This document shows, one piece after another, positions 18,487-37,362 of a DNA stretch of 37,362 bases. The notes below the pieces were generated by a model. The model was not told where the DNA came from, did not search any database, and saw only the letters and a list, made by a program, of their open reading frames with translations. The translations under genes were made by a program, and so were the position numbers. Every line of letters starts with the position of its first letter. Positions within the stretch are counted from its first letter, which is position 1. Source of the stretch: Porticoccaceae bacterium UBA2002 (GTDB taxonomy: Bacteria > Pseudomonadota > Gammaproteobacteria > Pseudomonadales > Porticoccaceae); the NCBI GenBank assembly GCA_002334915.1, contig DDCQ01000067.1, forward strand, positions 1,482 to 38,843, read 5' to 3'.

Positions 18487-18508
18487 GCGGTAAAAGGGGG
18501 AGAAAGTT

Positions 18509-19750: not shown

Positions 19751-19761
19751 GGGAGACGACA

Positions 19762-20064
19762 ATGAAACTATTAACTTGCCCCCTCAATGGCCAGCGCAAT
19801 ATCTCTGAATTTACCTATGGTGGTGAGTACCACCCTATGCCAAACCCAAATTCCACCAGCCCCAGAAAGTGGGCCGAGTATGTATTCTTTCACGACAATG
19901 AGGCCGGCGTGGTTATCGAATGGTGGTGCCATACCGCCAGCTCATTTTGGTTTCTGGCAGAGCGCAACACTGTTACAGATACAGTGATTCGCACCTTTGA
20001 AGCCAGTGAAATATTTAAGCGACGAATCGACTTTGTTGAGCCGACCTCCGGAGACATAACCTGA
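19762..20064 (+). CDS. soxD: Sarcosine oxidase delta subunit, non-canonical zinc site
   Basis: This is the small subunit of heterotetrameric sarcosine oxidase (100 residues). The family signature SEFTYGGEYHPMP is present, and the C-terminal half shows EWWCHTASSFWF. In characterised delta subunits zinc is held by two cysteines of an N-terminal CPxCG plus a later His and Cys (HxxGC). Here only the first cysteine remains (TCPLNG, with Asn in place of the second) and the HxxGC cysteine is serine. A cysteine instead stands directly before the conserved histidine (Cys56-His57). The subunit may bind zinc differently or not at all. Its TGA overlaps the soxA ATG by one base. Confidence 0.93.
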   Translation: MKLLTCPLNGQRNISEFTYGGEYHPMPNPNSTSPRKWAEYVFFHDNEAGVVIEWWCHTASSFWFLAERNTVTDTVIRTFEASEIFKRRIDFVEPTSGDIT

Positions 20065-22961: not shown

Positions 22962-22963
22962 CC

Positions 22964-23665
22964 ATGAGTGAACAAAAACCTGATCAGGCCCTGAGACGCA
23001 GCCCTCTTTATCGCCGTCATCTGCAGTTAAATGCGCGGTTTGAAGAGCTTGGCGATGCTCTGGTGGTAAGTGCCTATGGCGATACAGGTATGGAACCCAG
23101 ACTGGGTGTCAGCCTGGCAGTGGCTGACCTGTGCTGTCTGCCGCGCACGGGATTTAAAGGTCCCGGGGCTCCTGACTGGGCCGCTGACCAGGGGGTAGAA
23201 CTGCCCTCAGCACCCAATACAGCGCTGGCCCAGGCCGATGGATCCTTGGTCGCTAAACTCTCCCATCAAGAACTGTTAATTTGCTCTGATATGCAGGGCC
23301 ACTCCGGCCTGATAGATAGACTTAACCATCAGGCTCCTGCTCCGGGAGTCTATTCCCTGCCCCGCGCAGATAGCCACAGCTGGCTGGCCGTTACAGGCCT
23401 GCTGGCAGCAGAGATGTTTTCAAAAATCTGCGGGGTGGATTTGCGTACCCATAAGTTCGCCCAGGGCCAGGTAGCCCAGACATCCATCGCCAAAATTAAT
23501 GGTGTAATTGTCCGTCATGACCTGGGCGCTACCCCTTGCTTCCATATTTTCAGTGATATTGCATCTACAGAGTTTCTGTGGGACTGCCTGCTGGATGCTA
23601 TGGAAGAACATCTGGGCGTCGCCATTGGTGTCGCAGCCATAAGAAGTCTTGCCGCGACTGAGTAA
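22964..23665 (+). CDS. soxG: Sarcosine oxidase gamma subunit
   Basis: This 233-residue GcvT-fold subunit completes the sarcosine oxidase heterotetramer. Visible family features are LGVSLAVADLCCLPRTGFKGPGA, the DSHSWLAVTGLLAAEMFSKICGVDLR segment and the C-terminal SDIASTEFLWDCLLDAMEE. It starts with ATG two bases after the soxA stop. A LysR-type regulator gene follows after 35 bp on the same strand, with no terminator visible between them. Confidence 0.93.
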   Translation: MSEQKPDQALRRSPLYRRHLQLNARFEELGDALVVSAYGDTGMEPRLGVSLAVADLCCLPRTGFKGPGAPDWAADQGVELPSAPNTALAQADGSLVAKLSHQELLICSDMQGHSGLIDRLNHQAPAPGVYSLPRADSHSWLAVTGLLAAEMFSKICGVDLRTHKFAQGQVAQTSIAKINGVIVRHDLGATPCFHIFSDIASTEFLWDCLLDAMEEHLGVAIGVAAIRSLAATE

Positions 23666-23700: not shown

Positions 23701-24678
23701 ATGAAAAGGCACAAAAATATAGAAATGTCCGCGCTGCGTATTTTTGCTGCAGTCAGTGAGACGGAGACATTAACCCAGGCCGCCGAGCGCCTGGGTATCA
23801 CTCAGTCTGCGGTATCACAAACCATCAAACAGCTGGAGATTCAGACCCATACCCAGCTGGTGGACACTAGATCTCGCCCGGTTAGGCTCACCCCCAGTGG
23901 TCAGGTACTTAAAGATTACGCCCTGCAAATTATCGATGATACTAAACGCATGCTGGCCGACGTACGCCTGACTGCCAAAGGCGGCACACTGCCCTTAAAT
24001 ATAGGTATGGTCGATTCATTTTGCGATGTGGCGGGCCTGCAACTGATGCAACAGCTCAACCCCTATGTCTCCAAACTGACCCTGCGCACAGGTCTGGGAT
24101 CATCTCTGTCTCAGGATTTACTAAATCGCAATCTGGATATATTGATTACCAGCGACCCGATCGATGAACATCCGGAGCTGCAGCGCTATCCTATTTTGCG
24201 CGACCCCTTTGTGATGATTGTGCCAGATAACTGCAGCGAAGAGGGCTCGGTAACAGCGGCCTGGCTAGCCGAGAATGTACCCTTTATTCATTACACTAGA
24301 GAATCCCGACTGGGCAAATTGACTGATCTGATAGCCCGTCGCTTGGACATCCAGCCCCAGACTGCCTATGAGCTGGACAGCACACAAACCCTAATGCGTT
24401 TTGTGCAGTCTGGTCAGGGCTGGGCTATTACCACCGGCCTCTGTCTGGTGCGCTATCCCGAACTATTGCAGGGTTGCAGAGTATTGCAACTGGCCAGTGG
24501 TGCCAACGCGCGCCATTTAACTATGCTCTGCCGCGAGAATGAACTGGGTGTCTTACCGGAGCAAATCGCGACCGCCTGCCGCTCAATCTACAGCGACGAA
24601 ATAGTGCCCCAACTAATAAAGATAGCGCCCTGGCTTGAACAGCAGGCCTATGCCATTACCGAAATGCCGGCCATCTAA
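23701..24678 (+). CDS. LysR-type transcriptional regulator next to sox genes
   Basis: This DNA-binding regulator (325 residues) has an N-terminal winged helix-turn-helix, LTQAAERLGITQSAVSQTIKQLE at about residues 22-44, and a periplasmic-binding-protein-like effector domain. Because it directly follows soxG on the same strand it could control the sarcosine oxidase operon. It is also convergent with dddD (48-bp gap), so a role in DMSP genes cannot be excluded. The effector is unknown. LysR proteins usually act from divergently placed operators, and none is evident here, which makes the target uncertain. Confidence 0.92.
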   Translation: MKRHKNIEMSALRIFAAVSETETLTQAAERLGITQSAVSQTIKQLEIQTHTQLVDTRSRPVRLTPSGQVLKDYALQIIDDTKRMLADVRLTAKGGTLPLNIGMVDSFCDVAGLQLMQQLNPYVSKLTLRTGLGSSLSQDLLNRNLDILITSDPIDEHPELQRYPILRDPFVMIVPDNCSEEGSVTAAWLAENVPFIHYTRESRLGKLTDLIARRLDIQPQTAYELDSTQTLMRFVQSGQGWAITTGLCLVRYPELLQGCRVLQLASGANARHLTMLCRENELGVLPEQIATACRSIYSDEIVPQLIKIAPWLEQQAYAITEMPAI

Positions 24679-24725: not shown

Positions 24726-27335
24726 TTATGTGATGAAGATATCTCCCTCGGTCGACTCGGTATCGACCCAACTTGCAGCCTCTGTATCCACAGCGCTGAA
24801 AAGTCCATCTAGTTCAGGCATTGGCTGCCCCGAAGAATCGGCTGGCAGGTAGGTTTTACCCCAGGCTAAACCAGCGATACCGCGCTCCAGCATGGCATCA
24901 ATCTGCACATCTGTGTAACCCACTGCCGCAAGAATTTCGCGGGTGGATTGGCCATGGGCCTCGGTTGGGCCCACTGCATCAATCCGGGCACAGGTTGGAC
25001 GAATCGCATAATGATCAATCTGAGTTAGCTGATGACCGCTGGGATGATCAGGATAAATAGAGAAAGCAAAGCTGCCACGCTCAGTACCCACTGTGCCATC
25101 GGCGACTCGGCTGTACTGCTCGCGCAGGGTCTCAATAGACAGAGGCTGCGCCGCTGCCACATCTGCGGCCAGCAAACGCTTCATCCATTTCTGCGAAGAC
25201 GCCTGCTGGAATGCTACGGTTAAAAATACCTGAATATCTGCGGTGGTGGTAATACCTTGCAGCCCCTGAATATTCTCCAGAGCAGGCAGATCGGCTGACT
25301 CGGCATCGAGGAAAATCCAGTCATCGGCTGTCTGATAAAAGTGGGATAGCTCATGGTTCCCCATCGCCTGACGACCAGAGGGTTCACTGAAGTCTTCAAG
25401 ACCTTCATAGTCGAAACAGAATGGCAGCTGGGCCAGATTAGTCACCGCGGACAGCGAGGTTCGCGCGCGGCTCGCTTCTCCGGTTTTAGCTCTGTGGTAA
25501 AGTGCTACCGCCATTGCCAGACCACCGGCAAAGCCACAGTTCACATCCAGAGTACCCAGGTGGGCATGTTCCTCTGGGGTATCAGGACCGCCGAAGCGAC
25601 TCATAATGCCGCTATTGGCCTGAATAATATCGTCGTAGCCAATATAGTTCGTCTTCTGCGCCGGTACGGGGCCACCCAGACAATCGAGCCGACAGAACAG
25701 CACACCGGGATTAATCGCCTGCAGTGCATCATGATCCAGCCCCAATGGCTTCATCTGACGCTCCGGTGCATTGATCACCACCATATCCACAGAGCGAACC
25801 AAACGGTTAAAGGCTTCTCGGCCCTCTTCTGTATTGATATCAATCAGTGCACTGCTCTTACCCATATCTGCCTGGAAGGCAAATAAGGTTCCGATCAGTG
25901 GATCGTACATGGGCACCACCGGCTCGATCTTAATCACCTCGGCCCCAAAGCGGCCAAGGAAAGCTGTGGAATGAGGACCGGCAATCACATTGGTCAAATC
26001 CAGCACCCGCAGCCCATCAAGCCAGCCCTGGGACTGCTTTGCTGGAGTCTGCTGGACAAGTACTGGTTTCGCTACCGCAACAAGCTCGGCCAGGGCCTGG
26101 TCAAAAATGACAAACCTGCGCGCAGCAGGGGCTAACATCCGGTGTGCAGATTCTTCTAACCAGGCCACCGGGCCAGGCTGCTTCATTAGCCCGTACTCCG
26201 GGTCATTTACTTCAACAATCAGTCCTGCATCATTGCAGTGTTTGCTATTGACCCATTCTTTGGTCGTTCTGTGTGGTGCGCCGGGGATCTGGCCCTCACC
26301 AAAAATTACACCCCACTGCGAAGATGTCTTAGTACGCATGACTAGCTTTATTTTTGCCGAAATAATATCCGCCCAGCGCTTGGGCAGCGGGTAAACACCC
26401 AGAGAGCTCTCACCTTCCCACTCGCTCACCGGCAGATGCAGATCGGTTATCTCTGGCATACCCTCAGCCATCACCTCTTCATAGAGACCCAGCACTTCCA
26501 GACAGCGACGAGCATGGTTGCGATGAGAGGGGCAAACAATATAGAACATGCGGCCATCAGCACATTTATAGGTGCGGTAGAAGGGGTCCAGATATTCCTG
26601 AAGCTGTTCGTAGCTCAGGTCAAAATCAATATTGCTGGCACGGCGGCGCTCGATCTCCAGCTCGCGCATGGTCTTATAGCGTTCTGGCAGATCGGCCACC
26701 TGATAGGAGTTATAGGACAGGCCTTCCATCATCGCCGCAATCACTGGCACTTCTATATGGTCACCCAAACCAGTGTTCTCACGAGCCAGCAGCGCCAGAA
26801 CCACAGAGCTCGCGGCCAGGGTAATGGTGTAAGACGACGCTAAAGGCAGTGGCGAAAAGCAGGGGTTTAAACCCATCAGCACGCGGTTAAAGCCCATATC
26901 CGTAAAGGCTCCCGCTGTCGCGGCTACCACAGCTTCGGTGGCTTTCCACTGGCTGCGCAGCTGGTCGTTGCTAGCAAAACCGGGCACTGACAATGTGATT
27001 AGCTGTGGGTACGTTTTACGCAACTCAGCAAAATCAATGCCCAGTCTCTGCATCACCCCAGGGCGAAATGATTCAATCACCACATCGGCATGATCAATCA
27101 ACTCCAACGCCTGATTCAAACCCTCAGAGGTTTTTAAATCCAGTCGGAGACAGCTTTTGTTGCGGTTCAAAATTCCATTGGCCTGATGCGTCCACTGGGG
27201 CCCTGCAGGCGGGTCAATATGCACCACAGTGGCACCCAAATCTGCCAGTACCATAGCCACCGCTGGACCCGCAATCTGCTGACCAAAGTCGACTACCCGA
27301 ACCCCTTTAAGAGGCAATTGAACCTGTTTTTCCAT
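24726..27335 (-). CDS. dddD: DMSP lyase DddD, fused class III CoA-transferase
   Basis: DddD transfers CoA from acetyl-CoA to dimethylsulfoniopropionate and releases DMS, giving 3-hydroxypropionyl-CoA. Two CaiB/BaiF domains are fused: the first opens with VRVVDFGQQIAGPAVAMVL, the second (residue about 440) with LRVLDLTNVIAGPHSTAFLG. Only the second domain keeps the catalytic aspartate, in GTLDVNCGFAGG (Asp597 here). The equivalent place in the first domain reads PLPLASSYTI. This matches characterised DddD, where the second-domain Asp is essential. I chose the ATG at 27335 (869 residues), which is preceded by AGAG; ATG 27383 and TTG 27431 are also in frame. Its neighbours are dddT, dddB and dddC, the known pathway genes. 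An unrelated double CaiB transferase is possible but unlikely in this context. Confidence 0.92.
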   Translation of the reverse strand: MEKQVQLPLKGVRVVDFGQQIAGPAVAMVLADLGATVVHIDPPAGPQWTHQANGILNRNKSCLRLDLKTSEGLNQALELIDHADVVIESFRPGVMQRLGIDFAELRKTYPQLITLSVPGFASNDQLRSQWKATEAVVAATAGAFTDMGFNRVLMGLNPCFSPLPLASSYTITLAASSVVLALLARENTGLGDHIEVPVIAAMMEGLSYNSYQVADLPERYKTMRELEIERRRASNIDFDLSYEQLQEYLDPFYRTYKCADGRMFYIVCPSHRNHARRCLEVLGLYEEVMAEGMPEITDLHLPVSEWEGESSLGVYPLPKRWADIISAKIKLVMRTKTSSQWGVIFGEGQIPGAPHRTTKEWVNSKHCNDAGLIVEVNDPEYGLMKQPGPVAWLEESAHRMLAPAARRFVIFDQALAELVAVAKPVLVQQTPAKQSQGWLDGLRVLDLTNVIAGPHSTAFLGRFGAEVIKIEPVVPMYDPLIGTLFAFQADMGKSSALIDINTEEGREAFNRLVRSVDMVVINAPERQMKPLGLDHDALQAINPGVLFCRLDCLGGPVPAQKTNYIGYDDIIQANSGIMSRFGGPDTPEEHAHLGTLDVNCGFAGGLAMAVALYHRAKTGEASRARTSLSAVTNLAQLPFCFDYEGLEDFSEPSGRQAMGNHELSHFYQTADDWIFLDAESADLPALENIQGLQGITTTADIQVFLTVAFQQASSQKWMKRLLAADVAAAQPLSIETLREQYSRVADGTVGTERGSFAFSIYPDHPSGHQLTQIDHYAIRPTCARIDAVGPTEAHGQSTREILAAVGYTDVQIDAMLERGIAGLAWGKTYLPADSSGQPMPELDGLFSAVDTEAASWVDTESTEGDIFIT

Positions 27336-27439
27336 CACTGATACTCTGTTTTTTTCTGTGGGCCCTGAATGGTCGTTTTCCATCGCTATAAGAGCCCGCC
27401 TTCTGGCCGCGATCATAGAAACCAACAGCAAGTCCCACC

Positions 27440-27481
27440 AGCAATAAAAAATACCCCTAAGGCCGTGTTTTTTTTATTGCT
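27440..27481. repeat. 12-bp perfect inverted repeat between dddD and dddT
   Basis: AGCAATAAAAAA (27440-27451) is repeated inversely as TTTTTTATTGCT (27470-27481), with an 18-bp interval that itself contains the palindrome CCTAAGG. Because of the A/T tracts it could act as a bidirectional transcription barrier, or it could be a regulator site near the dddD promoter. Confidence 0.6.
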
Positions 27482-27495
27482 AAGATTTTTTTCTC

Positions 27496-27511
27496 CGGGC
27501 TACAGAGCCCG
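27496..27511. repeat. 6-bp GC-rich inverted repeat upstream of dddT
   Basis: CGGGCT (27496-27501) and AGCCCG (27506-27511) flank a 4-bp centre. It is not followed by T on either strand, so a terminator is unlikely. It sits about 90 bp upstream of the predicted dddT -35 element and could be an operator. Confidence 0.4.
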
Positions 27512-27597
27512 CCATTACTGGATTTATCCCAAGACATAATTTTATTAATGGCAGCTGGGTGCTGCTGTGCAAAATAAATTAATAGGGGTCGAATTTG

Positions 27598-27626
27598 TTG
27601 TGCTTTTACTATAAAAACAATATGAT
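27598..27626 (+). promoter_or_regulatory. Predicted sigma-70 promoter of dddT
   Basis: TTGTGC (27598-27603), a 17-bp spacer and TATGAT (27621-27626) precede dddT, giving a leader of roughly 45 bases. It is the best -35/-10 pair in the divergent region on the plus strand. Confidence 0.5.
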
Positions 27627-27666
27627 CTGTATCGTTTTAAGACAGAAATCCATTAAAATAATAATC

Positions 27667-27670
27667 GGAG
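27667..27670 (+). promoter_or_regulatory. Shine-Dalgarno GGAG fixing a TTG start for dddT
   Basis: GGAG ends 7 bases before the TTG at 27678, ideal spacing. The next in-frame ATG (27726) has no such site, so TTG is the likely start codon of dddT. Confidence 0.65.
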
Positions 27671-27677
27671 AATAATT

Positions 27678-29243
27678 TTGATAGCAGCAGAAAAATCTGG
27701 CTTTTTGTCGGGCACTCACCCTGTTATGGCCGTAGGTTCTGCAATTTTAGTGGCGGGGTTTGTTTTATTTACGCTTATTAGCCCGACGACTGCTAGCGCG
27801 CTTTACAGTTCGGCGCGGGACTTTATCGCCGCGGAACTCAGCTGGTACTACATCAGCCTGATGAATCTGTTTTTACTGTTAGCCATAGGGCTGGTATTTA
27901 GCAAGTACGGCAAAATACGTCTGGGCCAGGATTCAGAGACGCCAGAATTTAGTTACTTTGCCTGGTTCTCCATGTTATTTGGCGCCGGCATTGGTATAGG
28001 AATCCTGTTCTGGAGTATCGCGGAACCCATGTACTATCTGCAGGCCAATCCATTTATCACTGAGTCACAGGCTATGAGCCCAGAAGCGGCTCAGGTTGCT
28101 ATGAGAATCACCATATTCCACTGGGGTCTGCACGGCTGGGCGCTCTATGGGGTGCTCGGCATGTGCTTTGCCTATTTCGCCTATCGTAAAGGGCTGCCAC
28201 TCTCTATTCGCTCAGCCCTCTACCCGATTTTTGGCGAGCGAATCTATGGGCCCATAGGTCATATCGCCGATTTGCTGGCGGTGCTAGGCACGGTATTTGG
28301 CATTGCCACATCGCTGGGAATGGGTGCCCAGCAGATGAATGCCGGAATCCACTATTTGCTGGGTATTAATATCAGCGTAGCAACGCAGATTCTGCTAATT
28401 GTTGTTATCACTGTGGTAGCCACTATCTCTGTGCTAACAGGGGTTAACCGGGGTATTCGTATTCTCAGTGAGCTCAATATGCGACTGACGGTGGTGATAC
28501 TGGCCCTGTTCTTTATCTTTGGGCCAACCCTGTATTTGCTCAGCTCTTTTGCCAGCAATACTGTTGATTATCTGATCAATGCGCCAGCTCTGGGTGTCTG
28601 GCTGGCACCACAGCAACATCTGCAATGGCAGAGCGACTGGACTATTTTCTACTGGGGCTGGTGGCTTGCCTGGTCACCGTTTACTGGTCTTTTTATTGCC
28701 CGTATTTCCCGCGGTCGCACCATCAGAGAATTTCTTGTCGGTGTACTCGGGGCGCCCACTCTACTGACTATTCTGTGGATTACCCTGTTTGGCAATACGG
28801 CTATGTTTATTGAGCTATTTGGCGATGGAGGTGTCACCGCCGCAGTCAATGCAGACCGCACAATCGCCCTGTTCAAAACCATTGAGTTGCTGGATTTGGG
28901 CATGCTGCTGACCGGTCTTATGGCCAGCATTTGCACTTTTATGTTGGTTACCTACTTCGTGACCTCGGCAGATTCTGCAACATTGGTGATCTGCACCCTG
29001 GTGGCCATGGGCAACAATAATCCCGGGGCGCGGCTGCGGATATTTTGGGGGGTAGCCATAGGTTCGGTGGCTGCCGTGCTACTTTTTGCTGGTGGTCTCA
29101 ATGCTTTGCAAACTGCCTCTATTGCCGCGGCCCTGCCCTTTTCGTTTGTTCTAATTATGGCCACCTACGGTCTGTGTAAATCTCTTTATGCCGAGGGCAA
29201 AACTCTTCAGGCAGAAACAATAATAGCTAAAACTGGAGACTGA
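27678..29243 (+). CDS. dddT: BCCT-family transporter, probable DMSP uptake
   Basis: This secondary transporter of the betaine/carnitine/choline family (521 residues) has about 12 membrane helices. The BCCT signature is clear: FYWGWWLAWSPFTGLFIARI followed by SRGRTIREFLVG, and upstream HWGLHGWALYGVLGMCFAYF. The short N- and C-terminal tails suggest a Na+-driven catabolic rather than osmosensing carrier. Its position as first gene of dddTBC opposite dddD supports DMSP as substrate; glycine betaine or related zwitterions are possible. The start is TTG, supported by a well-placed GGAG. dddB starts 2 bp after its stop. Confidence 0.93.
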   Translation: MIAAEKSGFLSGTHPVMAVGSAILVAGFVLFTLISPTTASALYSSARDFIAAELSWYYISLMNLFLLLAIGLVFSKYGKIRLGQDSETPEFSYFAWFSMLFGAGIGIGILFWSIAEPMYYLQANPFITESQAMSPEAAQVAMRITIFHWGLHGWALYGVLGMCFAYFAYRKGLPLSIRSALYPIFGERIYGPIGHIADLLAVLGTVFGIATSLGMGAQQMNAGIHYLLGINISVATQILLIVVITVVATISVLTGVNRGIRILSELNMRLTVVILALFFIFGPTLYLLSSFASNTVDYLINAPALGVWLAPQQHLQWQSDWTIFYWGWWLAWSPFTGLFIARISRGRTIREFLVGVLGAPTLLTILWITLFGNTAMFIELFGDGGVTAAVNADRTIALFKTIELLDLGMLLTGLMASICTFMLVTYFVTSADSATLVICTLVAMGNNNPGARLRIFWGVAIGSVAAVLLFAGGLNALQTASIAAALPFSFVLIMATYGLCKSLYAEGKTLQAETIIAKTGD

Positions 29244-29245
29244 TA

Positions 29246-30403
29246 ATGTCGACACAAATAGTTCTGCCGCGCATTTTGCAGGTTGGCGATGGCGCCAGCA
29301 AAGAGGCCGGCAATATTCTTAATAGCCTGGGCTGCACGCGACCTTTAATTGTTACCGATAACATGATGGTACAGCTGGGCTATGTAGCTAGTCTGCAAAA
29401 GAGCCTTGAGGCGGCATCCATTGCCTCGGATATTTTTCAGGACACTGTCCCGGAACCCACCGTCAGCTCTATTCAGGCCGGTGTAGATAAGGTGCGTGAT
29501 GGCAACTACGACAGCATTATTGCCATTGGCGGTGGCAGCCCCATCGACAGTGCCAAGGCCATTGCCATTCTGGGCAAATACGGTGGCGTTATGCGTGACT
29601 ATAAATTCCCACGAGTGGTCAATGAGCCCGGGCTGCCCATTATTGCCATTCCCACCACTGCAGGCACCGGCTCTGAATGTACCAAGGTCACCATTATTAC
29701 CGACGAGACCAATGACGAAAAAATGCTCTGTGTTGGCATTGGCTTTATGCCAACGGCGGCATTGGTAGATTACAGCCTGACCCTGAGCCTGCCCGCCAGA
29801 ACCACAGCAGATACAGGTATTGATGCTCTGACCCATGCCATGGAAGCCTATGTAAGCAAGAAAGCCAGCCTCTACAGTGACAGTCAGGCTATAGCGGCTA
29901 TGAAACTAATTGCCCCTAATCTGCGCAAAGCTTTCCATGATGGCAGTGACCAAAAAGCCCGGGAAGAAATGATGCTGGGTGCCACACTGGCAGGTGTCGC
30001 TTTCTCCAACGCTTCAGTGGCGCTGGTTCACGGCATGTCACGCCCGATTGGCGCCTTCTACCATGTGCCCCATGGTCTCTCCAATGCCATGCTTCTGCCT
30101 ATGGTCACAGAGTTTAGTATTCCAGCGGCCATAGAACGCTATGCCGACTGTGCCCGCGCAATGGGCCTGGCCACTGAAGATGATTCTAACCATATCGCCA
30201 ACAGCAAACTAATGGACGAACTCTATGCTATTAATGAAGAACTGCAGGTGCCCAGTCCCGAGCAGTTTGGTATTGATGCTGACCACTTTCTTAATAACTT
30301 ACCGGTGATGGCAGAGCAGGCTCTGGCCTCTGGCTCACCGGGAAATAATCCGCGGGTACCCAGTGCCGACGAGATTATCGAAATCTATCGCAAGCTCTGG
30401 TAA
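29246..30403 (+). CDS. dddB: Iron-containing alcohol dehydrogenase (3-hydroxypropionate oxidation)
   Basis: This group III metal-dependent dehydrogenase (385 residues) has the NAD-binding IIAIGGGSPIDSAKAIAI and the iron-ligand regions DTGIDALTHAMEAY and VHGMSRPIGAFYHVPHGLSNAMLLP. The histidines of the latter and the Asp and His of the former form the metal site. In ddd clusters DddB oxidises 3-hydroxypropionate (or its CoA form) to malonate semialdehyde, which dddC downstream consumes. It is packed 2 bp after dddT and 24 bp before dddC, clearly one operon. The substrate is inferred from the context. Confidence 0.93.
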   Translation: MSTQIVLPRILQVGDGASKEAGNILNSLGCTRPLIVTDNMMVQLGYVASLQKSLEAASIASDIFQDTVPEPTVSSIQAGVDKVRDGNYDSIIAIGGGSPIDSAKAIAILGKYGGVMRDYKFPRVVNEPGLPIIAIPTTAGTGSECTKVTIITDETNDEKMLCVGIGFMPTAALVDYSLTLSLPARTTADTGIDALTHAMEAYVSKKASLYSDSQAIAAMKLIAPNLRKAFHDGSDQKAREEMMLGATLAGVAFSNASVALVHGMSRPIGAFYHVPHGLSNAMLLPMVTEFSIPAAIERYADCARAMGLATEDDSNHIANSKLMDELYAINEELQVPSPEQFGIDADHFLNNLPVMAEQALASGSPGNNPRVPSADEIIEIYRKLW

Positions 30404-30427
30404 AACACATTTTTTGAGGATAACACC

Positions 30428-31924
30428 ATGACAGTAGTAGGACATTTAATTAATGGCCAGATAACCAATGAGGGCGAACGCACTCAGGATATCTACAACC
30501 CATCCACCGGCGAAGTGAGCAAGCAGGTTGCTCTGGCTTCAAAGGCTACAGTGGAAGAAGCGATTGCCGCGGCCCAGGCAGCTTACCCGGAATGGCGCAA
30601 TACTCCGGCCATAAAACGTGCCCGGGTGATGTTTAAATTTAAGGATTTACTGGAGCAGAATGCGGATAAAATCTGCGCGCTAATCGGCGAAGAGCATGGC
30701 AAAATCAGCCATGATGCCGCCGGTGAGTTGCAGCGCGGTATTGAGAATGTGGAATATGCCTGCTGTGCACCAGAGCTGTTAAAGGGCGAGCACAGTAAAA
30801 ATGTGGCACCTAACATTGATTCCTGGAGTGAGTTCCAACCTCTGGGGGTAGTGGCTGGTATTACGCCATTTAATTTCCCGGCCATGGTGCCTCTGTGGAT
30901 GTACCCAATGGCCATCGTCTGCGGTAACTGTTTTATTCTTAAGCCCTCTGAGCGCGACCCCAGCTCCACCTTATTTATAGCTCAACTGCTAAAAGAAGCC
31001 GGCCTGCCCGACGGCGTCATGAATGTGGTCAATGGCGATAAGCAAGCAGTTGATACATTGCTTAATGACGAGCGCATTAAAGCAGTGAGCTTTGTAGGTT
31101 CCACTCCTATTGCGGAATATATCTATAGCACCGCCAATGCCAATGGCAAGCGCTGTCAGGCACTGGGTGGCGCTAAGAACCACGCTATTGTGATGCCCGA
31201 TGCGGATATGGATAACGCCGTGGCTCAGCTTTTAGGCGCTGCCTTTGGTTCCTCTGGCGAGCGCTGCATGGCTCTGTCAGTTGCAGTAGCTGTTGGCGAT
31301 GCCGCCGCAGATGCGCTGGTCAGTAAAATGCAGGAAGCCATGAAAGGCTTAAAGATTGGCCCCTGCCATGATGCTGATAATGATTTTGGCCCAGTGATTA
31401 CCCAGCAACATCAGCAAAAGGTCTTTGCCTATATCGACAGTGCCGAAAAGCAAGGCGCTGATATTGTCGTGGATGGTCGCAACCCCAGCATTGATGGCTA
31501 TGAAAATGGCTTCTATGTGGGTGGCACATTGATCGATCGTGTGACGCCTGAGATGGATAGCTACAATGCCGAAATCTTTGGCCCTGTGCTGCAGGTAGTG
31601 CGGGTCGATACCATGCAGGGGGCCATGGATCTGATTGATAATCATGAATATGGCAATGGCACCTGTATCTTTACCAGAGACGGTGAAGCAGCGCGCTACT
31701 TCTCTGACCATATTCAGGTGGGCATGGTGGGTATTAATATTCCCCTGCCAGTGCCTGTGGCCTACCACAGCTTTGGCGGTTGGAAGCGCTCATTATTTGG
31801 CGACCTGCATGCCTATGGCCCGGATGCTGTGCGCTTTTATACCAAGCGCAAAACCATCACGCAGCGCTGGCCTTCAGCTGGTGTCCGTGAAGGTGCCCAG
31901 TTCTCTATGCCAACCATGAGCTAA
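30428..31924 (+). CDS. dddC: CoA-acylating (methyl)malonate-semialdehyde dehydrogenase
   Basis: This aldehyde dehydrogenase (498 residues) belongs to the MMSDH group that converts malonate semialdehyde to acetyl-CoA or methylmalonate semialdehyde to propionyl-CoA. The catalytic cysteine is in FGSSGERCMALSVAV, the family form of GQRCMA. GVVAGITPFNFPAMVPLWMYP and SFVGSTPIAEYIY are also typical. The C-terminal YGPDAVRFYTKRKTITQRW is conserved. In the ddd context (dddC) it would finish the conversion of the DMSP carbon chain to acetyl-CoA. The alternative name mmsA fits the family equally well; location next to dddB favours dddC. Confidence 0.94.
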   Translation: MTVVGHLINGQITNEGERTQDIYNPSTGEVSKQVALASKATVEEAIAAAQAAYPEWRNTPAIKRARVMFKFKDLLEQNADKICALIGEEHGKISHDAAGELQRGIENVEYACCAPELLKGEHSKNVAPNIDSWSEFQPLGVVAGITPFNFPAMVPLWMYPMAIVCGNCFILKPSERDPSSTLFIAQLLKEAGLPDGVMNVVNGDKQAVDTLLNDERIKAVSFVGSTPIAEYIYSTANANGKRCQALGGAKNHAIVMPDADMDNAVAQLLGAAFGSSGERCMALSVAVAVGDAAADALVSKMQEAMKGLKIGPCHDADNDFGPVITQQHQQKVFAYIDSAEKQGADIVVDGRNPSIDGYENGFYVGGTLIDRVTPEMDSYNAEIFGPVLQVVRVDTMQGAMDLIDNHEYGNGTCIFTRDGEAARYFSDHIQVGMVGINIPLPVPVAYHSFGGWKRSLFGDLHAYGPDAVRFYTKRKTITQRWPSAGVREGAQFSMPTMS

Positions 31925-31933
31925 TCTAGATTT

Positions 31934-32698
31934 ATGAGTACCAGGGAAAAAGGCTCGGCGGTTAGTCGGGTGATGGAGATTATCGAGGCAGTTGCCAAAG
32001 CTGAGCGACCACTGTCGCCAGCTGATCTAGCCTGCCAGCTGAATATTCCCAAGCCCAGTATCCATCGCCTGCTCAATCAGCTAGAAACAGGTGGTTTTGT
32101 GCAGACCAATATGCGTGGACTCATAATTCCCAGCGCAAAAATGCACAGCATCGCCTGGGGCGTGCTGCATACAGAACGCTTTAGCGCAGTGCGCCGCGCC
32201 ATATTGCAACAGCTGACCCAAGAGATAGATGAGACCTGCGGTATTGCTGTACCCAATGGCACAGAGATGAGGTATTACGATCGGGTGCAGTCTGACTGGC
32301 CTCTGCAGATCCATCTGCAAGTGGGCAGCCATACGCCCAGCTGGTGCACTGCAAGTGGCAAACTCTATCTGAGCTCACTACCCAGAGAACGGCGCCGACG
32401 TATTATCGATAAGCTGCCACTAATGCAGTACACACGCAACACCATTGTCGATGCGGAGACTTTGGAAACAGAGCTTCAGCGGATAAAAACAAGTCGCGTG
32501 GGAACAGACAACGAAGAGTTTGTGGATGGTATGGTGGCCTGCGCTGTTCCCATAACCGATAGCAGCGGTAAACTTTGCGCCTGTCTGTTTACCCATGCTC
32601 CGGTGATACGCAAGAGCTTTGAAGAACTGATGGCCTATACCCCTATTCTGCAGAGCGCCGCGGAAAATCTTGGCCAGCTAATTGATCACCCCGAATAA
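31934..32698 (+). CDS. IclR-family transcriptional regulator
   Basis: This regulator (254 residues) has an N-terminal winged helix-turn-helix (PLSPADLACQLNIPKPSIHRLLNQLE, about residues 26-51) and a C-terminal IclR effector domain with the conserved SWCTASGKLYLSSLP and FVDGMVACAVPI. It starts 9 bp after the dddC stop, so it is probably co-transcribed with the DMSP genes. It would then respond to a pathway intermediate, acting as repressor or activator. The well-known ddd regulator is of LysR type, so an IclR protein in the operon is an additional element of unknown role. Confidence 0.93.
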   Translation: MSTREKGSAVSRVMEIIEAVAKAERPLSPADLACQLNIPKPSIHRLLNQLETGGFVQTNMRGLIIPSAKMHSIAWGVLHTERFSAVRRAILQQLTQEIDETCGIAVPNGTEMRYYDRVQSDWPLQIHLQVGSHTPSWCTASGKLYLSSLPRERRRRIIDKLPLMQYTRNTIVDAETLETELQRIKTSRVGTDNEEFVDGMVACAVPITDSSGKLCACLFTHAPVIRKSFEELMAYTPILQSAAENLGQLIDHPE

Positions 32699-32725
32699 AC
32701 GGCAGTCAACCCAAAGAAGATAATC

Positions 32726-33616
32726 ATGAAAAAAAGATTACCGCCATTAAACTGGCTGCGCTCTTTCGAGGCCGCCGCCCGCCACCTCAACTTCACTCAG
32801 GCCGCTGCAGAGTTACATATGACTCAGGCTGCTATCAGTCAGCAAATTAAAGGTCTGGAGACCACGCTGGGTTGCGCACTTTTTATTCGCTTGCCCAGGG
32901 GCCTGGAACTTACCGATGCTGGTCGGGCCTATATTCCCGGCGTGCGTGAATCCATTGAAAAACTGGCGCTGGTGACCGACGAGGTATTCGGCAAAGAGCG
33001 CAGTTACACCTTAACGGTGCGGGTCAATCTGGTGTTCTTTAATACCTGGCTGGCCCCAAGGCTGGCGAATTTTCGCGCCCAGTATCCGGATATTGATCTG
33101 CGCTTTACCAGTAATATATGGGTCGCTGGTCAGGATAAGGAAGCGGATGTTGAAATTCGCTATGGCAAAGGTTTCTGGTCTGGATTTACCAGCAATCGTC
33201 TGACCTGGGATGATCTTATTCCGGTTTGTAGCCCTGAACTACTTAACGGTCAGGTACCTCCTGCGAGCCCGGAGGATCTTGATAATTACAGTTTGCTCCA
33301 TGTGATTGGCTATGAAGAAGGCTGGGGCTATTGGCTCAACCAGCTGGGCTATCACAGCATCGATGCCTCTCAGGGCATTCATTTTGATTCATTGATGACG
33401 GCAATGGAAATGGCAGCTCAGGGACATGGCCTTGCTCTGAGCAGGACATCCCTGATTGGTCCTATGCTGGACAATGGTCGTCTAATTGCGCCTTTTTCAC
33501 AGACTACCGGGACTTCTGAATCATTCTTTTTGGCAACTCCCTCCAATAAACCCGTGCGACCTCATGTGGAGCAATTTCGGCAATGGCTAATTAATCAAGC
33601 TGAAGTCGCAGGCTAG
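32726..33616 (+). CDS. LysR-type regulator, GcvA-like; candidate DMSP regulator
   Basis: This 296-residue regulator starts like GcvA proteins: LPPLNWLRSFEAAARHLNFT followed by the helix-turn-helix TQAAAELHMTQAAISQQIKGLE. A LysR substrate-binding domain follows. It lies 27 bp downstream of the IclR gene, last in the dddTBC transcription unit. In characterised clusters a LysR protein called DddR adjoins dddTBC and activates in response to DMSP, so this is the best dddR candidate. I leave the symbol empty because similarity to DddR itself cannot be checked. The gene ends just before the long inverted repeat. Confidence 0.92.
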   Translation: MKKRLPPLNWLRSFEAAARHLNFTQAAAELHMTQAAISQQIKGLETTLGCALFIRLPRGLELTDAGRAYIPGVRESIEKLALVTDEVFGKERSYTLTVRVNLVFFNTWLAPRLANFRAQYPDIDLRFTSNIWVAGQDKEADVEIRYGKGFWSGFTSNRLTWDDLIPVCSPELLNGQVPPASPEDLDNYSLLHVIGYEEGWGYWLNQLGYHSIDASQGIHFDSLMTAMEMAAQGHGLALSRTSLIGPMLDNGRLIAPFSQTTGTSESFFLATPSNKPVRPHVEQFRQWLINQAEVAG

Positions 33617-33783: not shown

Positions 33784-34515
33784 TTAGTCTCCTGCTCCTG
33801 CTCTGGAGCTTTCGGTAGATTCTACTAAGACTCGGGCGACCAAATTATCCAGCTCATGCCACAGATTATCGTCAATCTCGATGCCCTGCTCTAGCATATC
33901 GTTATAGCTATCAATCATGGTATCAGGTGAAGTGATTTCGGTTAGCGGGCCGGGGTTTATGGCGACAGAAAACTTTTCTTCGACGGAGGCTAAATCATTG
34001 CCAACAAAAATCATTAGAGACTGAACTGCGGCAATAGGAGATGGTGAGTATCTTGACACTGTGGGCTGTTTTGCACGGGGCTCAATACTAAATTTAAAGC
34101 CACTATCCCCCTCGACCCAATAAGCCACCAGAGCCGAATCCAACTGTGCGGCACTGACTAAGCGCTGGGCTATAAACCGGCGATTGTGACAATTATTAAG
34201 CTGCACCTGACCGCAGCCATGCTGGCGAGCCAGAGCACAGGCCAGTCTTACCGCCTGGCTGCCGCAAAGCAGAATGGAACTGCTCTGGCCATCAAGCACC
34301 GCATGGTTGTCACCATTGCTGATTAATTTGCAATGCAGACAGAGGCAGCTATAGAGAGAGGGTAAGGCCTCCTGCAGCTGCTGTAAGCCATTTAAACCAT
34401 GCATCTGCGACCAGATAACCATAGCCGCCGCATCCTGATAGTCGCCCACAGAGAACCCTAAACCTTCAAACGCCTTCTTCAGAGAAGCCGTCAATTCATT
34501 GCGCGAGACTCTCAT
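33784..34515 (-). CDS. DUF3726-like protein of unknown function
   Basis: From the ATG at 34515 the product is 243 residues. The start MRVSRNELTASLKKAFEGLGFSVGDYQDAA and the following AAMVIWSQMHGLNGLQQLQEALP resemble the DUF3726 family, which I know only as an uncharacterised group. The family assignment is from memory and moderately sure. No signal peptide or catalytic motif is visible; a SSILLCGSQAVRLACALA segment and a C-terminal acidic helix are present. The ATG lies 4 bp after the stop of the 589-residue gene, so the two are translationally coupled and probably act together. An upstream extension to 34605 overlaps that gene and is not favoured. Confidence 0.8.
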   Translation of the reverse strand: MRVSRNELTASLKKAFEGLGFSVGDYQDAAAMVIWSQMHGLNGLQQLQEALPSLYSCLCLHCKLISNGDNHAVLDGQSSSILLCGSQAVRLACALARQHGCGQVQLNNCHNRRFIAQRLVSAAQLDSALVAYWVEGDSGFKFSIEPRAKQPTVSRYSPSPIAAVQSLMIFVGNDLASVEEKFSVAINPGPLTEITSPDTMIDSYNDMLEQGIEIDDNLWHELDNLVARVLVESTESSRAGAGD

Positions 34516-34519
34516 GATT

Positions 34520-36289
34520 TTACGTCGAACTGGGGGCTGTGTTTTTAGACAACACTGGTTTGATGGGGAATTGCCAGTCATCAAAGAATGGCTTATCAAA
34601 ATCACTAACTAGTGGCGCGCCCTGGAACATAGTATTGCGCACCCACAGACGGGAGCGCGGGTCGAACTTACTGACACCGAAGAACGACAGCTTGCAGCGC
34701 AACAGATGGATAGGCAGAACATCGCTGTGCACCAGATTTTCACGAATATCGCCATACTGGCTCTGAGCCATGGTTTGGATGCGGCAGATAGCGCCACTTA
34801 GGTTGGGCTGCTGCAGAATAAAATGGGCAACATCCTGCAACGGGAACTGTTCAATATGCCCAGATATCTGGTCATAGCATTCACGCACCATACGACCAAT
34901 TGCCAGGGGCATTTGCTTTTCCATGCCCAGGTCGACATTGGATTGACCCAGGCGTGGTTCCATCTTTTCTTCCGAGCGATACCAGAACGAGCCCTGGGAT
35001 TCCATCTGCCCAAAGTCGATGGCCAGTGCCCAGTCATATTTATCTTCGATAAGCGCCTGCAAATCCGCCAGTGACATCTGAGGTATCAGATGTTGATCTT
35101 CCTCGACGCACATCATGTCCTCAAGGTCGTCAACGAGCTCTGGATAGAGCTCGATCAACATGGTATTGATCACTTCCTGGGTTTCAATATGCCAGCTTTG
35201 CTCGGCGTACTGCACCAGATCTGCCCAGCTGTAACGGCTGGCCACAATATTGTCTCGCTCAGCGCTCAACCATTGAGCGAGCTGCTGCAACTCGTCACGA
35301 ACCAGCCCATTAGACATATTTTGCTGGGTATCGCCGGTACTGATCTCGCCCAGATGCTGCACAACTCTGCCAGCGGCAGTTTCAAATCGTTCTAACAGGT
35401 CAGCATGGATGCCATCGGCACCAGCAACAATGGCGCGGGCCAGTGCTGTCTCGCGCTGTTCGATCCATTGATTGATCAGCAGCGGATGATTAATTAAAAA
35501 TGGCGCCATACCCAGACCTGTAGAGTTGCCAATCCCAAAGTAGCGCTTGATATCATCATCCAGCTTTACGGCGGTTTTTGGCGCGCGCTGGGCAGCGATA
35601 TAGTCAGCATGCTGGAGGCTAAAATGGCGCAGCATAAAACAGGTAAACATTTCTGCGGCGAAGGGACGGGCAAAGTCACGGTGCTTGGTGCGAACTTTTT
35701 CCCAGTCGGCCATGCCCAGCTTGCCGCTGCCATAGGCGGCGGTAGTGCGATAGAGATAGCCCACTTCGGCGATAACATCGATATCTGGCTGACGACCCTG
35801 AGCCAGCTCATCGACGACATAATCAAAGGTGCGGCCGCTGCGATTGCCCCTGGACAGCACAAAAACCCGGGAATCAACCCGCCCTGCTTCTTGCTTGGGT
35901 ACATTGCTGCGCAAAAACTCCAGCTGCTCGGCATTCACTGTGCCTTCACAGAGTGCCATGGTCAGATCCCACTGGTCGGCGATTACTCGATCATTGCGGT
36001 TTTCAGGGTCGAGGTAATGGGAGAACAGTACATAGCTATAGGTGCCATATTTGGCTTTCACTTCATAGACCGCAGTGCCATAGCCCTCTGTATCCAGATC
36101 AAAAACCGTGCTGTTGATCTGCCAGTTTTCCCGCACCATGCGGCGCACCAATGTGCGCATAAAGCTCAGACGAGACTGATGAAAACTACCCAGACGATTC
36201 AACTGCATAACCTGACTGGCAGGCCGCATGGGCAACACAGCGCTTTGGCTGTGACTATGCTTGGCAGTTGGTCGATACGGCGAATGCAC
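34520..36289 (-). CDS. Large conserved-looking protein of unknown function
   Basis: I do not recognise this 589-residue protein. It has no signal peptide or membrane segment and is expected in the cytoplasm. Noticeable features are an Arg-rich N-terminus (LSFMRTLVRRMVRENWQI), a possible beta-rich domain (GYGTAVYEVKAKYGTYSYVLFSHYL), RVFVLSRGNRSGRTFDYVVD, HRDFARPFAAEMFTCFMLRH, and YFGIGNSTGLGMAPFLINHP. A His-x-Cys-rich or P-loop motif is not evident. A GTG start at 36289 is supported by AAGGA 7 bp upstream; a TTG at 36313 would overlap that site. It is coupled to the DUF3726-like gene downstream and lies 176 bp after the dipeptidase-like gene. Confidence 0.8.
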   Translation of the reverse strand: MHSPYRPTAKHSHSQSAVLPMRPASQVMQLNRLGSFHQSRLSFMRTLVRRMVRENWQINSTVFDLDTEGYGTAVYEVKAKYGTYSYVLFSHYLDPENRNDRVIADQWDLTMALCEGTVNAEQLEFLRSNVPKQEAGRVDSRVFVLSRGNRSGRTFDYVVDELAQGRQPDIDVIAEVGYLYRTTAAYGSGKLGMADWEKVRTKHRDFARPFAAEMFTCFMLRHFSLQHADYIAAQRAPKTAVKLDDDIKRYFGIGNSTGLGMAPFLINHPLLINQWIEQRETALARAIVAGADGIHADLLERFETAAGRVVQHLGEISTGDTQQNMSNGLVRDELQQLAQWLSAERDNIVASRYSWADLVQYAEQSWHIETQEVINTMLIELYPELVDDLEDMMCVEEDQHLIPQMSLADLQALIEDKYDWALAIDFGQMESQGSFWYRSEEKMEPRLGQSNVDLGMEKQMPLAIGRMVRECYDQISGHIEQFPLQDVAHFILQQPNLSGAICRIQTMAQSQYGDIRENLVHSDVLPIHLLRCKLSFFGVSKFDPRSRLWVRNTMFQGAPLVSDFDKPFFDDWQFPIKPVLSKNTAPSST

Positions 36290-36296
36290 GGGCTGT

Positions 36297-36301
36297 TCCT
36301 T
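36297..36301 (-). promoter_or_regulatory. Shine-Dalgarno AAGGA fixing a GTG start
   Basis: On the minus strand AAGGA is separated by 7 bases from GTG at 36289-36287. This ideal spacing selects GTG as the start of the 589-residue protein over the upstream TTG. Confidence 0.7.
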
Positions 36302-36396
36302 TAATAGTCGCAAATATCAGCATCGATTTGGGGCTGATTTTTCGGCTATTGTAGGCTTAGTCCTTGACCGCGACTTAACTAAAAACGACATTGAAA

Positions 36397-36436
36397 AGAC
36401 AGTTGCGACAGCGTTATTTTGCGCCTGCAACTGTCT
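36397..36436 (-). terminator. Hairpin after the dipeptidase-like gene, possible terminator or attenuator
   Basis: AGACAGTTGC (36397-36406) and GCAACTGTCT (36427-36436) form a perfect 10-bp stem with a 20-base interior that has a small GCG/CGC stem. On the minus strand the stem ends in TCTTTTC, a short T-run. It lies 30 bp after the dipeptidase stop and about 100 bp before the unknown gene, so it could end or attenuate transcription between them. It could also be an operator. Confidence 0.55.
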
Positions 36437-36465
36437 GTTACCGGACCTGTTTCCGCGACCCTGGT

Positions 36466-37362
36466 TTAGGAATTTAGGGGCGCTCTGGGGAAGGATTTTG
36501 CAAAGAATGACAGCCAGTTTTGACCCATTATTTTCTCTATATCTGCATTGTCAAAACCCACATCCTCAAGGCCCTGAGCTACGGTCAGCATATCTTTTGA
36601 ACCCACAAACCAGCTGGGTTGACGGGGCCATGACGGGCTGGCCGCAGAGCCCTCACCATGGTCGATACCCAGGGTCCAGCGACCACTGCGCATCCATTCG
36701 AGTATTGAGTAGTCCCAGTTTTCGCAGAGGTCGGAGCCGATACCAATGCGGTCTATCCCGATCATGTCGGCGGTTTGGGCAATCATCTGACAGAATTCCT
36801 GCAAGCTGCAGTCGGAGCCATTTTTGAGATGGAAGGGGTACATGCTAAAGCCCAGCATACCCTCGGATTCACCGATGGCGCGCAGTACTGTATCGGATTT
36901 ATTGCGCAGTGCCGGGTGGAAAAAGCTTGGATTAGCATGGGTAATGGCGATGGGCCGCTCGGAAATCTCAATGGCTTCCAGCGTTGACTTTTCGGCACTG
37001 TGGGACATATCGATAATCATACCTACGCGGTTCATCTCTTTGATCACCTCGCGGCCAAATCTGGTGATACCACCATCCTGCTCTTCATAACAGCCTGTGG
37101 CCAGCAGACTCTGATTGTTGTAGCTGAGCTGCATAATGCGCACCCCCAGCTGTTGCAGAATCTGCACCATTTTGACATCGTCTTCAATGGGCGAGCAGTT
37201 CTGGAAACCAAAGATAATACCCACTTTACCCAGTCGCTTGGCTTCCAGGATATCCGCGGCCTGCTGAATTGGCATAATCAGATCGGCATGGTTGATAAAA
37301 TGCCGATTCCAGTGGCCAATATTCTCCAGAGTCTCGCGAATATTTTCCCAGTAGGCAATGGT
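36466..37362 (-). CDS. Membrane (renal) dipeptidase-like M19 hydrolase, 5' end cut by window edge
   Basis: This is a zinc-dependent dipeptidase-family (peptidase M19) protein. The frame is open to the right edge; 298 residues are seen and the N-terminal part with the first metal-binding HxD is missing. Visible landmarks are LGVRIMQLSYNNQSLLATGC, GMIIDMSHSAEKSTLEA with the family DxSH motif, PIAITHANPSFF with a metal-ligand histidine, and IDRIGIGSDLCEN with the catalytic-site aspartate. Family members cleave dipeptides; related enzymes occur in methylated-amine gene clusters, for example beside glycine betaine genes in Pseudomonas. Its true substrate is unknown. It lies upstream of the two uncharacterised genes on the same strand. 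Confidence 0.9.
   Translation of the reverse strand, partial: TIAYWENIRETLENIGHWNRHFINHADLIMPIQQAADILEAKRLGKVGIIFGFQNCSPIEDDVKMVQILQQLGVRIMQLSYNNQSLLATGCYEEQDGGITRFGREVIKEMNRVGMIIDMSHSAEKSTLEAIEISERPIAITHANPSFFHPALRNKSDTVLRAIGESEGMLGFSMYPFHLKNGSDCSLQEFCQMIAQTADMIGIDRIGIGSDLCENWDYSILEWMRSGRWTLGIDHGEGSAASPSWPRQPSWFVGSKDMLTVAQGLEDVGFDNADIEKIMGQNWLSFFAKSFPRAPLNS

What the first reader, a model, noticed from the sequence alone, without database searches (positions are those of the whole stretch)
24726..33616. Complete DddD-type DMSP cleavage and assimilation locus
A fused double CaiB transferase diverges from BCCT carrier, iron alcohol dehydrogenase and CoA-acylating semialdehyde dehydrogenase, reproducing the known dddD/dddTBC gene set. 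Visible in the sequence: only the second CaiB domain keeps the catalytic Asp (in GTLDVNCG), as in characterised DddD. This predicts DMS release from DMSP with carbon flow to acetyl-CoA.
Basis: partly seen in the sequence, partly recalled or inferred. Interest (0 to 1): 0.75.

Follow-up and report, generated by a model that had tools for sequence, protein, structure and literature searches.

The report
SAR92 bacterium's DMSP-cleavage gene cluster
This is the gene set with which a marine SAR92 bacterium most likely breaks down the algal compound DMSP and releases the climate-active gas dimethyl sulfide; it is real and complete, but the same cluster has already been described and tested in close relatives.

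Summary
The window comes from a SAR92-clade (Porticoccaceae) draft genome. dddD (24726-27335, minus strand) encodes 869 aa with two CaiB (PF02515) domains. Only the second keeps the catalytic Asp (D597 in GTLDVNCG; D in all 37 full-length sequences compared, window included); the first has Ser there. dddD diverges from dddT-dddB-dddC-iclR-lysR (27678-33616). In a maximum-likelihood tree the protein is sister (97/98) to DddD of SAR92 strain H231 (90% identity), one of four SAR92 DddD enzymes that released DMS from DMSP with acetyl-CoA in vitro (PMC10746254). That paper already reports the gene order, the C-terminal extension and induction by DMSP. The finding is right but not new.

One addition, not in the papers I searched: a 21-bp imperfect palindrome (27616-27636, consensus AACRATAC-N5-GTATYGTT) upstream of dddT or dddB, present in 25 of 25 readable ddd loci with iclR and in 0 of 12 without. 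It occurs once in the window's genome. I propose it as the operator of the unstudied IclR regulator. This rests on about two independent evolutionary changes, and published induction of dddT is weak, so it is a hypothesis.

The parts
24726..27335 (-). dddD: fused double CaiB (type III CoA-transferase) DMSP CoA-transferase/lyase, 869 aa
   Evidence: PF02515, two stretches; sister to the assayed H231 DddD; 90% identity to it
26127..27311 (-). first CaiB domain (residues about 9-403), without the catalytic Asp (Ser at that column)
   Evidence: (best stretch 8-402 in 868-aa numbering)
25545..25547 (-). codon of Asp597, the catalytic Asp of the second CaiB domain (GTLDVNCG)
   Evidence: D in all 37 full-length sequences and in 5 of 5 single-domain CaiB proteins
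24726..24839 (-). SAR92-type C-terminal extension of DddD (about 37 aa beyond the end of the alignment with Marinomonas, Endozoicomonas and rhizobial DddD), with stop codon
   Evidence: such an extension is described in PMC10746254 section 7
27616..27636 (+). imperfect 21-bp palindrome AACAATATGATCTGTATCGTT, proposed operator of the IclR regulator, 42 bp upstream of the dddT start
27678..29243 (+). dddT: BCCT transporter, TTG start after a CGGAG ribosome-site-like stretch, 521 aa
   Evidence: PF02028 605 bits; 88% identical to the H231 homologue
29246..30403 (+). dddB: iron-containing alcohol dehydrogenase, 385 aa
   Evidence: PF00465/PF25137; 93% to H231
30428..31924 (+). dddC: CoA-acylating (methyl)malonate-semialdehyde dehydrogenase, 498 aa
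   Evidence: TIGR01722 above cut-off; 97% to H231
31934..32698 (+). iclR: IclR-family regulator, 254 aa
   Evidence: PF01614/PF09339; 82% to H231
32726..33616 (+). lysR: GcvA-type LysR regulator, 296 aa; a counterpart lies in ddd loci with and without iclR
   Evidence: NF008352 299 bits against cut-off 288

Best explanation
This is a complete SAR92-type DddD DMSP import, cleavage and assimilation locus. DddT imports DMSP. DddD moves CoA from acetyl-CoA to DMSP through Asp597 of its second domain and eliminates DMS, giving 3-hydroxypropionate or its CoA ester. DddB oxidises that to malonate semialdehyde, and DddC converts it to acetyl-CoA. The IclR and LysR regulators, the last two genes of the run, couple expression to DMSP or its products. 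Shown here: gene set, order, domain architecture, catalytic-residue pattern, clade membership. Shown by others for close relatives: DMS release by recombinant DddD, growth on DMSP and 3HP, upregulation by DMSP. Inferred: activity of this particular protein, substrate of this BCCT, roles of the two regulators.
For: Domain and family hits. Catalytic column. Tree with the assayed SAR92 H231, H921 and HTCC2207 DddD, window sister to H231 with 97/98, the same in a second tree (98/99) and for each domain alone. dddB and dddC both beside dddD and pointing away from it in 31 of the 40 loci L006-L045 (dddD 66-100% identical); 7 of the other 9 are cut by a contig end. PMC10746254, sections 7-9 read: four recombinant SAR92 DddD made DMS; same gene order in H921 and H231; dddD up 15-158-fold with DMSP.
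Against: None found against the identity. The protein itself is unassayed. Its closest solved transporters by sequence are annotated for trimethylamine and choline (411 and 383 bits), while the solved DddT scores 235.5 bits, so DMSP specificity of this BCCT is not shown by sequence. The Asp pattern is not specific to DddD (L057). The full-length tree has one distant outgroup on a very long branch. Marinomonas MWYL1 DddD itself was not in the sample; other Marinomonas sequences stand in for it.
Confidence: 0.96

Rival explanations
1. The fused transferase serves mainly another onium compound (carnitine, glycine betaine or gamma-butyrobetaine derivatives), and the BCCT, Fe-ADH and ALDH degrade that compound; DMSP cleavage is a side activity.
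For: The cluster is flanked by sarcosine-oxidase-type genes (purU-soxBDAG) and by DUF3726, a 597-aa protein and an M19 dipeptidase; that such genes go with glycine betaine catabolism is recalled. The BCCT is nearer to choline and trimethylamine carriers than to the solved DddT.
Against: Tree position inside DddD next to an assayed enzyme. DddC passes the MMSDH cut-off, which fits malonate semialdehyde. Upregulation by DMSP and growth on 3HP in relatives with the same cluster. In Marinomonas, Endozoicomonas and Pseudomonas MPC6 loci the ddd genes lie without the sarcosine-oxidase genes in the stretch fetched.
Confidence: 0.03
2. The 21-bp palindrome is the site of the LysR regulator, or a promoter element, and not the IclR operator.
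For: PMC13104084 (passages) lists LysR-type motifs such as ATAC-N7-GTAT at ddd promoters; the site here has a related shape. It lies 42 bp from the dddT start, where promoter elements could also be conserved. iclR and the site change together only twice on the tree. In H921 and H231 dddT, lysR and iclR rise only one- to fourfold with DMSP, and their regulation was not obvious in HTCC2207 and H455, which is weak for a strong switch at this site.
Against: A LysR counterpart (55-62% identical) is present in all 12 iclR-lacking ddd loci, yet none has the palindrome. The LysR of Pseudomonas MPC6 is hardly closer (63%), yet that locus has iclR and the palindrome.
Confidence: 0.4
3. The gene order is a chance juxtaposition or an assembly artefact.
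For: The genome is a draft (82% complete, 111 contigs).
Against: The same order is published for the H231 and H921 isolates and is found in many other contigs.
Confidence: 0.01

Closest known systems
SAR92 clade strain H231 ddd cluster (PMC10746254; locus L041)
   Same: Same genes in the same order and orientation; DddD 90% identical, DddT 88%, DddB 93%, DddC 97%; C-terminal extension; palindrome identical in sequence
   Different: A related but different organism (proteins 82-97% identical); the window's enzyme has not been assayed
Marinomonas-type dddD | dddTBC with a LysR gene (L029, L032, L033)
   Same: dddD divergent from dddT-dddB-dddC with a LysR gene after dddC
   Different: No iclR in the locus, no palindrome, no C-terminal extension of DddD, DddD 67-68% identical
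Halomonas HTNK1/D47 ddd-acu cluster (PMC13104084, passages seen)
   Same: dddD, dddT, dddC and a LysR regulator (AcuZ, which binds 3-HP and acrylate)
   Different: There acuN, acuK, acuI and the TetR regulator AcuR belong to the cluster, and dddA is listed and dddB is not; none of the window genes scanned between 20064 and 37275 matched such acu or TetR families

Membership tests
DddD DMSP CoA-transferase/lyase | two fused type III CoA-transferase (CaiB) domains, about 830-870 aa | tested here: met
   PF02515, two stretches; 869 aa
DddD DMSP CoA-transferase/lyase | catalytic Asp in the second domain only | tested here: met
   D597; Ser in domain 1; not exclusive to DddD (L057)
DddD DMSP CoA-transferase/lyase | groups with enzymes shown to cleave DMSP | tested here: met
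   sister to assayed H231, in a supported clade with H921 and HTCC2207 (assays read)
DddD DMSP CoA-transferase/lyase | releases DMS from DMSP with acetyl-CoA | not testable with these tools
   needs the protein; shown for four SAR92 homologues
ddd cluster of the Marinomonas/SAR92 kind | dddD divergent from dddT-dddB-dddC plus regulator | tested here: met
   the published order for H231 and H921 is dddTBC-iclR-lysR
DMSP transporter DddT | transports DMSP | not testable with these tools
   BCCT family met; substrate not decided by sequence, closer to trimethylamine and choline BCCT structures than to the solved DddT
IclR operator (proposed) | site present if and only if iclR is in the locus | tested here: inconclusive
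   25 of 25 with, 0 of 12 without, but only 2 changes on the tree, 1 independent pair on supported branches

The most novel reading that the evidence does not exclude
In SAR92 and at least two other bacteria (Paraglaciecola, a Pseudomonas plasmid) the ddd genes are wired to a dedicated IclR-family sensor through a palindromic operator (AACRATAC-N5-GTATYGTT) in the dddD/dddT or dddD/dddB divergon, single-copy in four of the five SAR92 genomes checked. This would be a control circuit different from the LysR-only Marinomonas type and the LysR/TetR (AcuZ/AcuR) Halomonas type.
Probability: 0.45. Interest if true: 0.4.

Novelty: already known. Interest (0 to 1): 0.2.

Why it matters
PMC10746254 describes SAR92 bacteria as abundant in coastal seawater and their dddD as widespread in polar oceans, so a correct call adds one more genome to a known source of a climate-active gas. 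The system itself is in print. The proposed IclR operator, if real, would show how these oligotrophs control DMSP breakdown, and it can be tested with one protein and one short DNA fragment.

Tried and rejected
Chance or artefact: rejected by synteny in isolates. Carnitine, oxalate or formyl-CoA transferase: NCBIfam equivalogs hit far below their cut-offs, and four own-genome single-domain CaiB proteins and one from Mesorhizobium fall outside both DddD domain clades. Cupin-type DMSP lyase elsewhere in the genome: none (PF16867); other lyase families were not searched, and the genome is 82% complete. Palindrome as a general repeat: rejected; a stricter pattern occurs once in the own genome, and its backwards control once in 10 genomes.

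Co-occurrence of palindrome and iclR on the tree: 1 supported pair (2 on all branches), too few for significance (31 rows, 20 with and 11 without iclR). I tried to add lineages. A draw of 369 genomes of the class gave 6 with a match at E 1e-100 or better, own genome included. I fetched 3 of the other 5: 2 had dddTBC, no iclR and no site, 1 had dddD without the other ddd genes. The order of one of them gave 5 of 48 including itself; the other 4 (56-57% identity) were not followed up. A search of the window's own order did not complete four times, so the non-SAR92 loci with iclR stay at two (L022, L048).

Rows dropped before counts. 37-row set: partial or single-domain rows (L002-L005, L014, L034, L036, L038-L040, L043, L044, L046) and the own or near-own copies L001 and L006. 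Tree: also without L057. iclR tally: left out are L001, L017, L018, L021 (divergon or operon not readable), L025, L040, L044 (site present, score 15-16, but the contig ends before the iclR position), L047, L049, L050 (no dddTBC), and L039, L043, L046, L057, which the script's filter removed. The 25 include the window and the nearly identical L006. The 12 without iclR are L026-L029, L032, L033, L035, L037, L045 and L062-L064. Of these L035 has no dddTBC beside dddD, L062 is interrupted by an IS66 element, and L026 has a partial operon. The consensus was written after seeing sites of SAR92 and some held-out loci, and its shuffles keep single-base content only, so that tally is not blind. The blinder test is: a matrix from 14 SAR92-type rows, tried on 24 loci that I chose (window, 12 held-out with the site region, 11 others). 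In L030, one of the 12, the best site barely beat another place in the locus (14.7 against 14.5), and in L025 iclR is not readable.
Full report
What is there. The window lies on contig C11 of a draft genome estimated 82% complete. The nearest sequences are from SAR92-clade Porticoccaceae. ORF calls and family scans give dddD on the minus strand (24726-27335) and, divergently, BCCT, iron alcohol dehydrogenase, CoA-acylating semialdehyde dehydrogenase, IclR and LysR (27678-33616).

Catalytic residue. In 37 full-length sequences (window plus 36 loci) the GTLDVNCG Asp is D in all. In a domain alignment of 11 domain-1, 11 domain-2 and 5 single-domain CaiB sequences, all 11 domain-1 rows have S and the other 16 have D. 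Alignments to solved CaiB proteins agree: the Asp of chain 5yit (Rv3272) aligns with a Ser in the stretch SPLPLASSY of domain 1, and an Asp of chain 10uh with the GTLDVNCG Asp. That this Asp was shown to be catalytic in Marinomonas DddD (Alcolombri 2014) is recalled; I saw only that paper's citation. The pattern is also present in a 41% Shinella relative (L057), so it does not define DddD alone.

Clade. In the 37-row tree the window is sister to SAR92 H231 (97/98), in a supported group with H921 and HTCC2207. The same sister pair appears for each domain alone and in a 38-row tree without the distant outgroup (98/99). In PMC10746254 (abstract, passages and sections 7, 8 and 9 read) the recombinant DddD of H921, H231, H455 and HTCC2207 each produced DMS from DMSP with acetyl-CoA. 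The clusters of H921 and H231 are dddD divergent from dddTBC-iclR-lysR. A C-terminal extension of about 35 residues is noted there, dddD rises 15-158-fold with DMSP, and 66 of 120 SAR92 MAGs carry dddD. The finding is thus correct and already in print for this clade.

Synteny. Of the 40 loci L006-L045 (dddD 66-100% identical), 31 have both dddB and dddC beside dddD and pointing away from it; 7 of the other 9 are cut by a contig end. In 22 of the 40, soxG- and soxA-type genes lie on the other side of dddD, and in 19 a DUF3726 gene follows lysR. In the window the left neighbours are purU (above its NCBIfam cut-off) and soxB-, soxD-, soxA- and soxG-type genes (all below theirs). The right ones are DUF3726, a 597-aa protein without a Pfam match (labelled DUF5943 from memory) and an M19 dipeptidase. 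That such genes belong to glycine betaine and sarcosine breakdown is recalled. So in SAR92 the DMSP locus sits inside what looks like a betaine-catabolism island. The words betaine and sarcosine do not occur in the main text of PMC10746254.

A possible operator. Aligning the dddD/dddT intergenic region of the window and 13 relatives showed, near dddT, a block kept in all 14: AACAATA-N7-TATCGTT or one base off. Another kept stretch, around CCAGCAA, lies nearer dddD and was not analysed. A matrix from those 14 rows (8 different sites) put its best site of the whole locus 41-250 bp upstream of the dddT or dddB match in 12 of 12 held-out loci, among them Paraglaciecola (L022) and a Pseudomonas plasmid (L048). 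It did so in none of 11 other loci (Marinomonas, Endozoicomonas, other Oceanospirillales, Salinisphaera, Paraburkholderia, rhizobia). With the symmetric consensus AACRATAC-N5-GTATYGTT (16 scored positions), 25 of 25 readable loci with iclR score 14-16. Three hundred single-base shuffles of each region never reached the observed score, except once in one locus (L034). Nine iclR-lacking loci score 10-12 in the searched region, and three more have nothing above 12 anywhere in the locus.

A stricter pattern (AACRATA-N7-TATCRTT) occurs once each in the own genome, H231, H921 and MOLA455, each time at the ddd divergon. It occurs twice in HTCC2207 and three times in Paraglaciecola, once there in each. 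It occurs once each in three of four genomes whose ddd locus lacks iclR, not at that locus. That is 12 places in 10 genomes, 6 of them at ddd divergons; the pattern read backwards gave 1. Because a LysR gene is present in both groups and IclR tracks the site, I propose IclR as its reader.

Against this reading: iclR and the site change together only twice on the tree, once on well-supported branches. In H921 and H231, dddT, iclR and lysR rise only one- to fourfold with DMSP, and in HTCC2207 and H455 the regulation of iclR and lysR was not obvious. A paper search for IclR, dddD and DMSP together found only PMC10746254, whose main text does not hold the word operator.

Rest of the genome. A DmdA homologue (375 bits against a cut-off of 410) is followed by an enoyl-CoA hydratase and an acyl-CoA ligase split over two overlapping ORFs, which resembles the dmdA-acuH-dmdB-dmdC order in PMC10746254; dmdC was not looked for. 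The organism may both cleave and demethylate DMSP if the split is an assembly error. No cupin DMSP lyase was found.

Verdict. Confirmed, ordinary for its clade, low interest; the IclR operator is the only part that goes beyond the papers I saw.

Noticed in passing
17608-23665 and 33784-37362: purU and soxB-, soxD-, soxA-, soxG-type genes on one side and DUF3726, a 597-aa protein and an M19 dipeptidase on the other enclose the ddd genes: the DMSP locus sits in a betaine/sarcosine-type catabolic island. soxG/soxA lie beside dddD in 22 of the 40 loci L006-L045, but not in the Marinomonas, Endozoicomonas or Pseudomonas MPC6 stretches fetched.
   Followed up: partly
L058:7087-11155: DmdA homologue followed by an enoyl-CoA hydratase and an acyl-CoA ligase split over two overlapping ORFs (frame break or assembly error).
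   Followed up: partly
L042, L019, L024 (also L008-L010, L014, L016): HTCC2207-type loci show no orthologue of the window's dddT at the divergon; a BCCT of only about 34% identity lies near the DUF5943/M19 genes instead. H921-type loci have both. The carrier called dddT may differ between SAR92 groups.
   Followed up: no
L006 and L007: Two contigs of one MAG (AK_MB88_1) each carry the ddd genes and their flanks at 100% and 87% dddD identity to the window. PMC4620155 (passages) also reports two dddD copies in an Antarctic SAR92 genome. Real duplication or mixed strains.
   Followed up: no
L062:4692-12511: A plasmid of a Pseudomonas aeruginosa isolate carries a 68% dddD with dddB and lysR, but no close dddT, dddC or iclR in the stretch; an IS66 element lies between dddD and dddB.
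   Followed up: no
L057:7989-10469: Shinella fused CaiB protein, 41% identical, same Asp pattern, quite different neighbours: perhaps a sister family with another substrate.
   Followed up: no
23701-24678: Another LysR regulator between soxG and dddD, kept beside dddD in many SAR92 loci; its targets are unknown.
   Followed up: no
27430-27460 (intergenic, dddD side): A second conserved stretch around CCAGCAA followed by a T-rich run in the dddD/dddT intergenic alignment, possibly part of the dddD promoter or leader.
   Followed up: no
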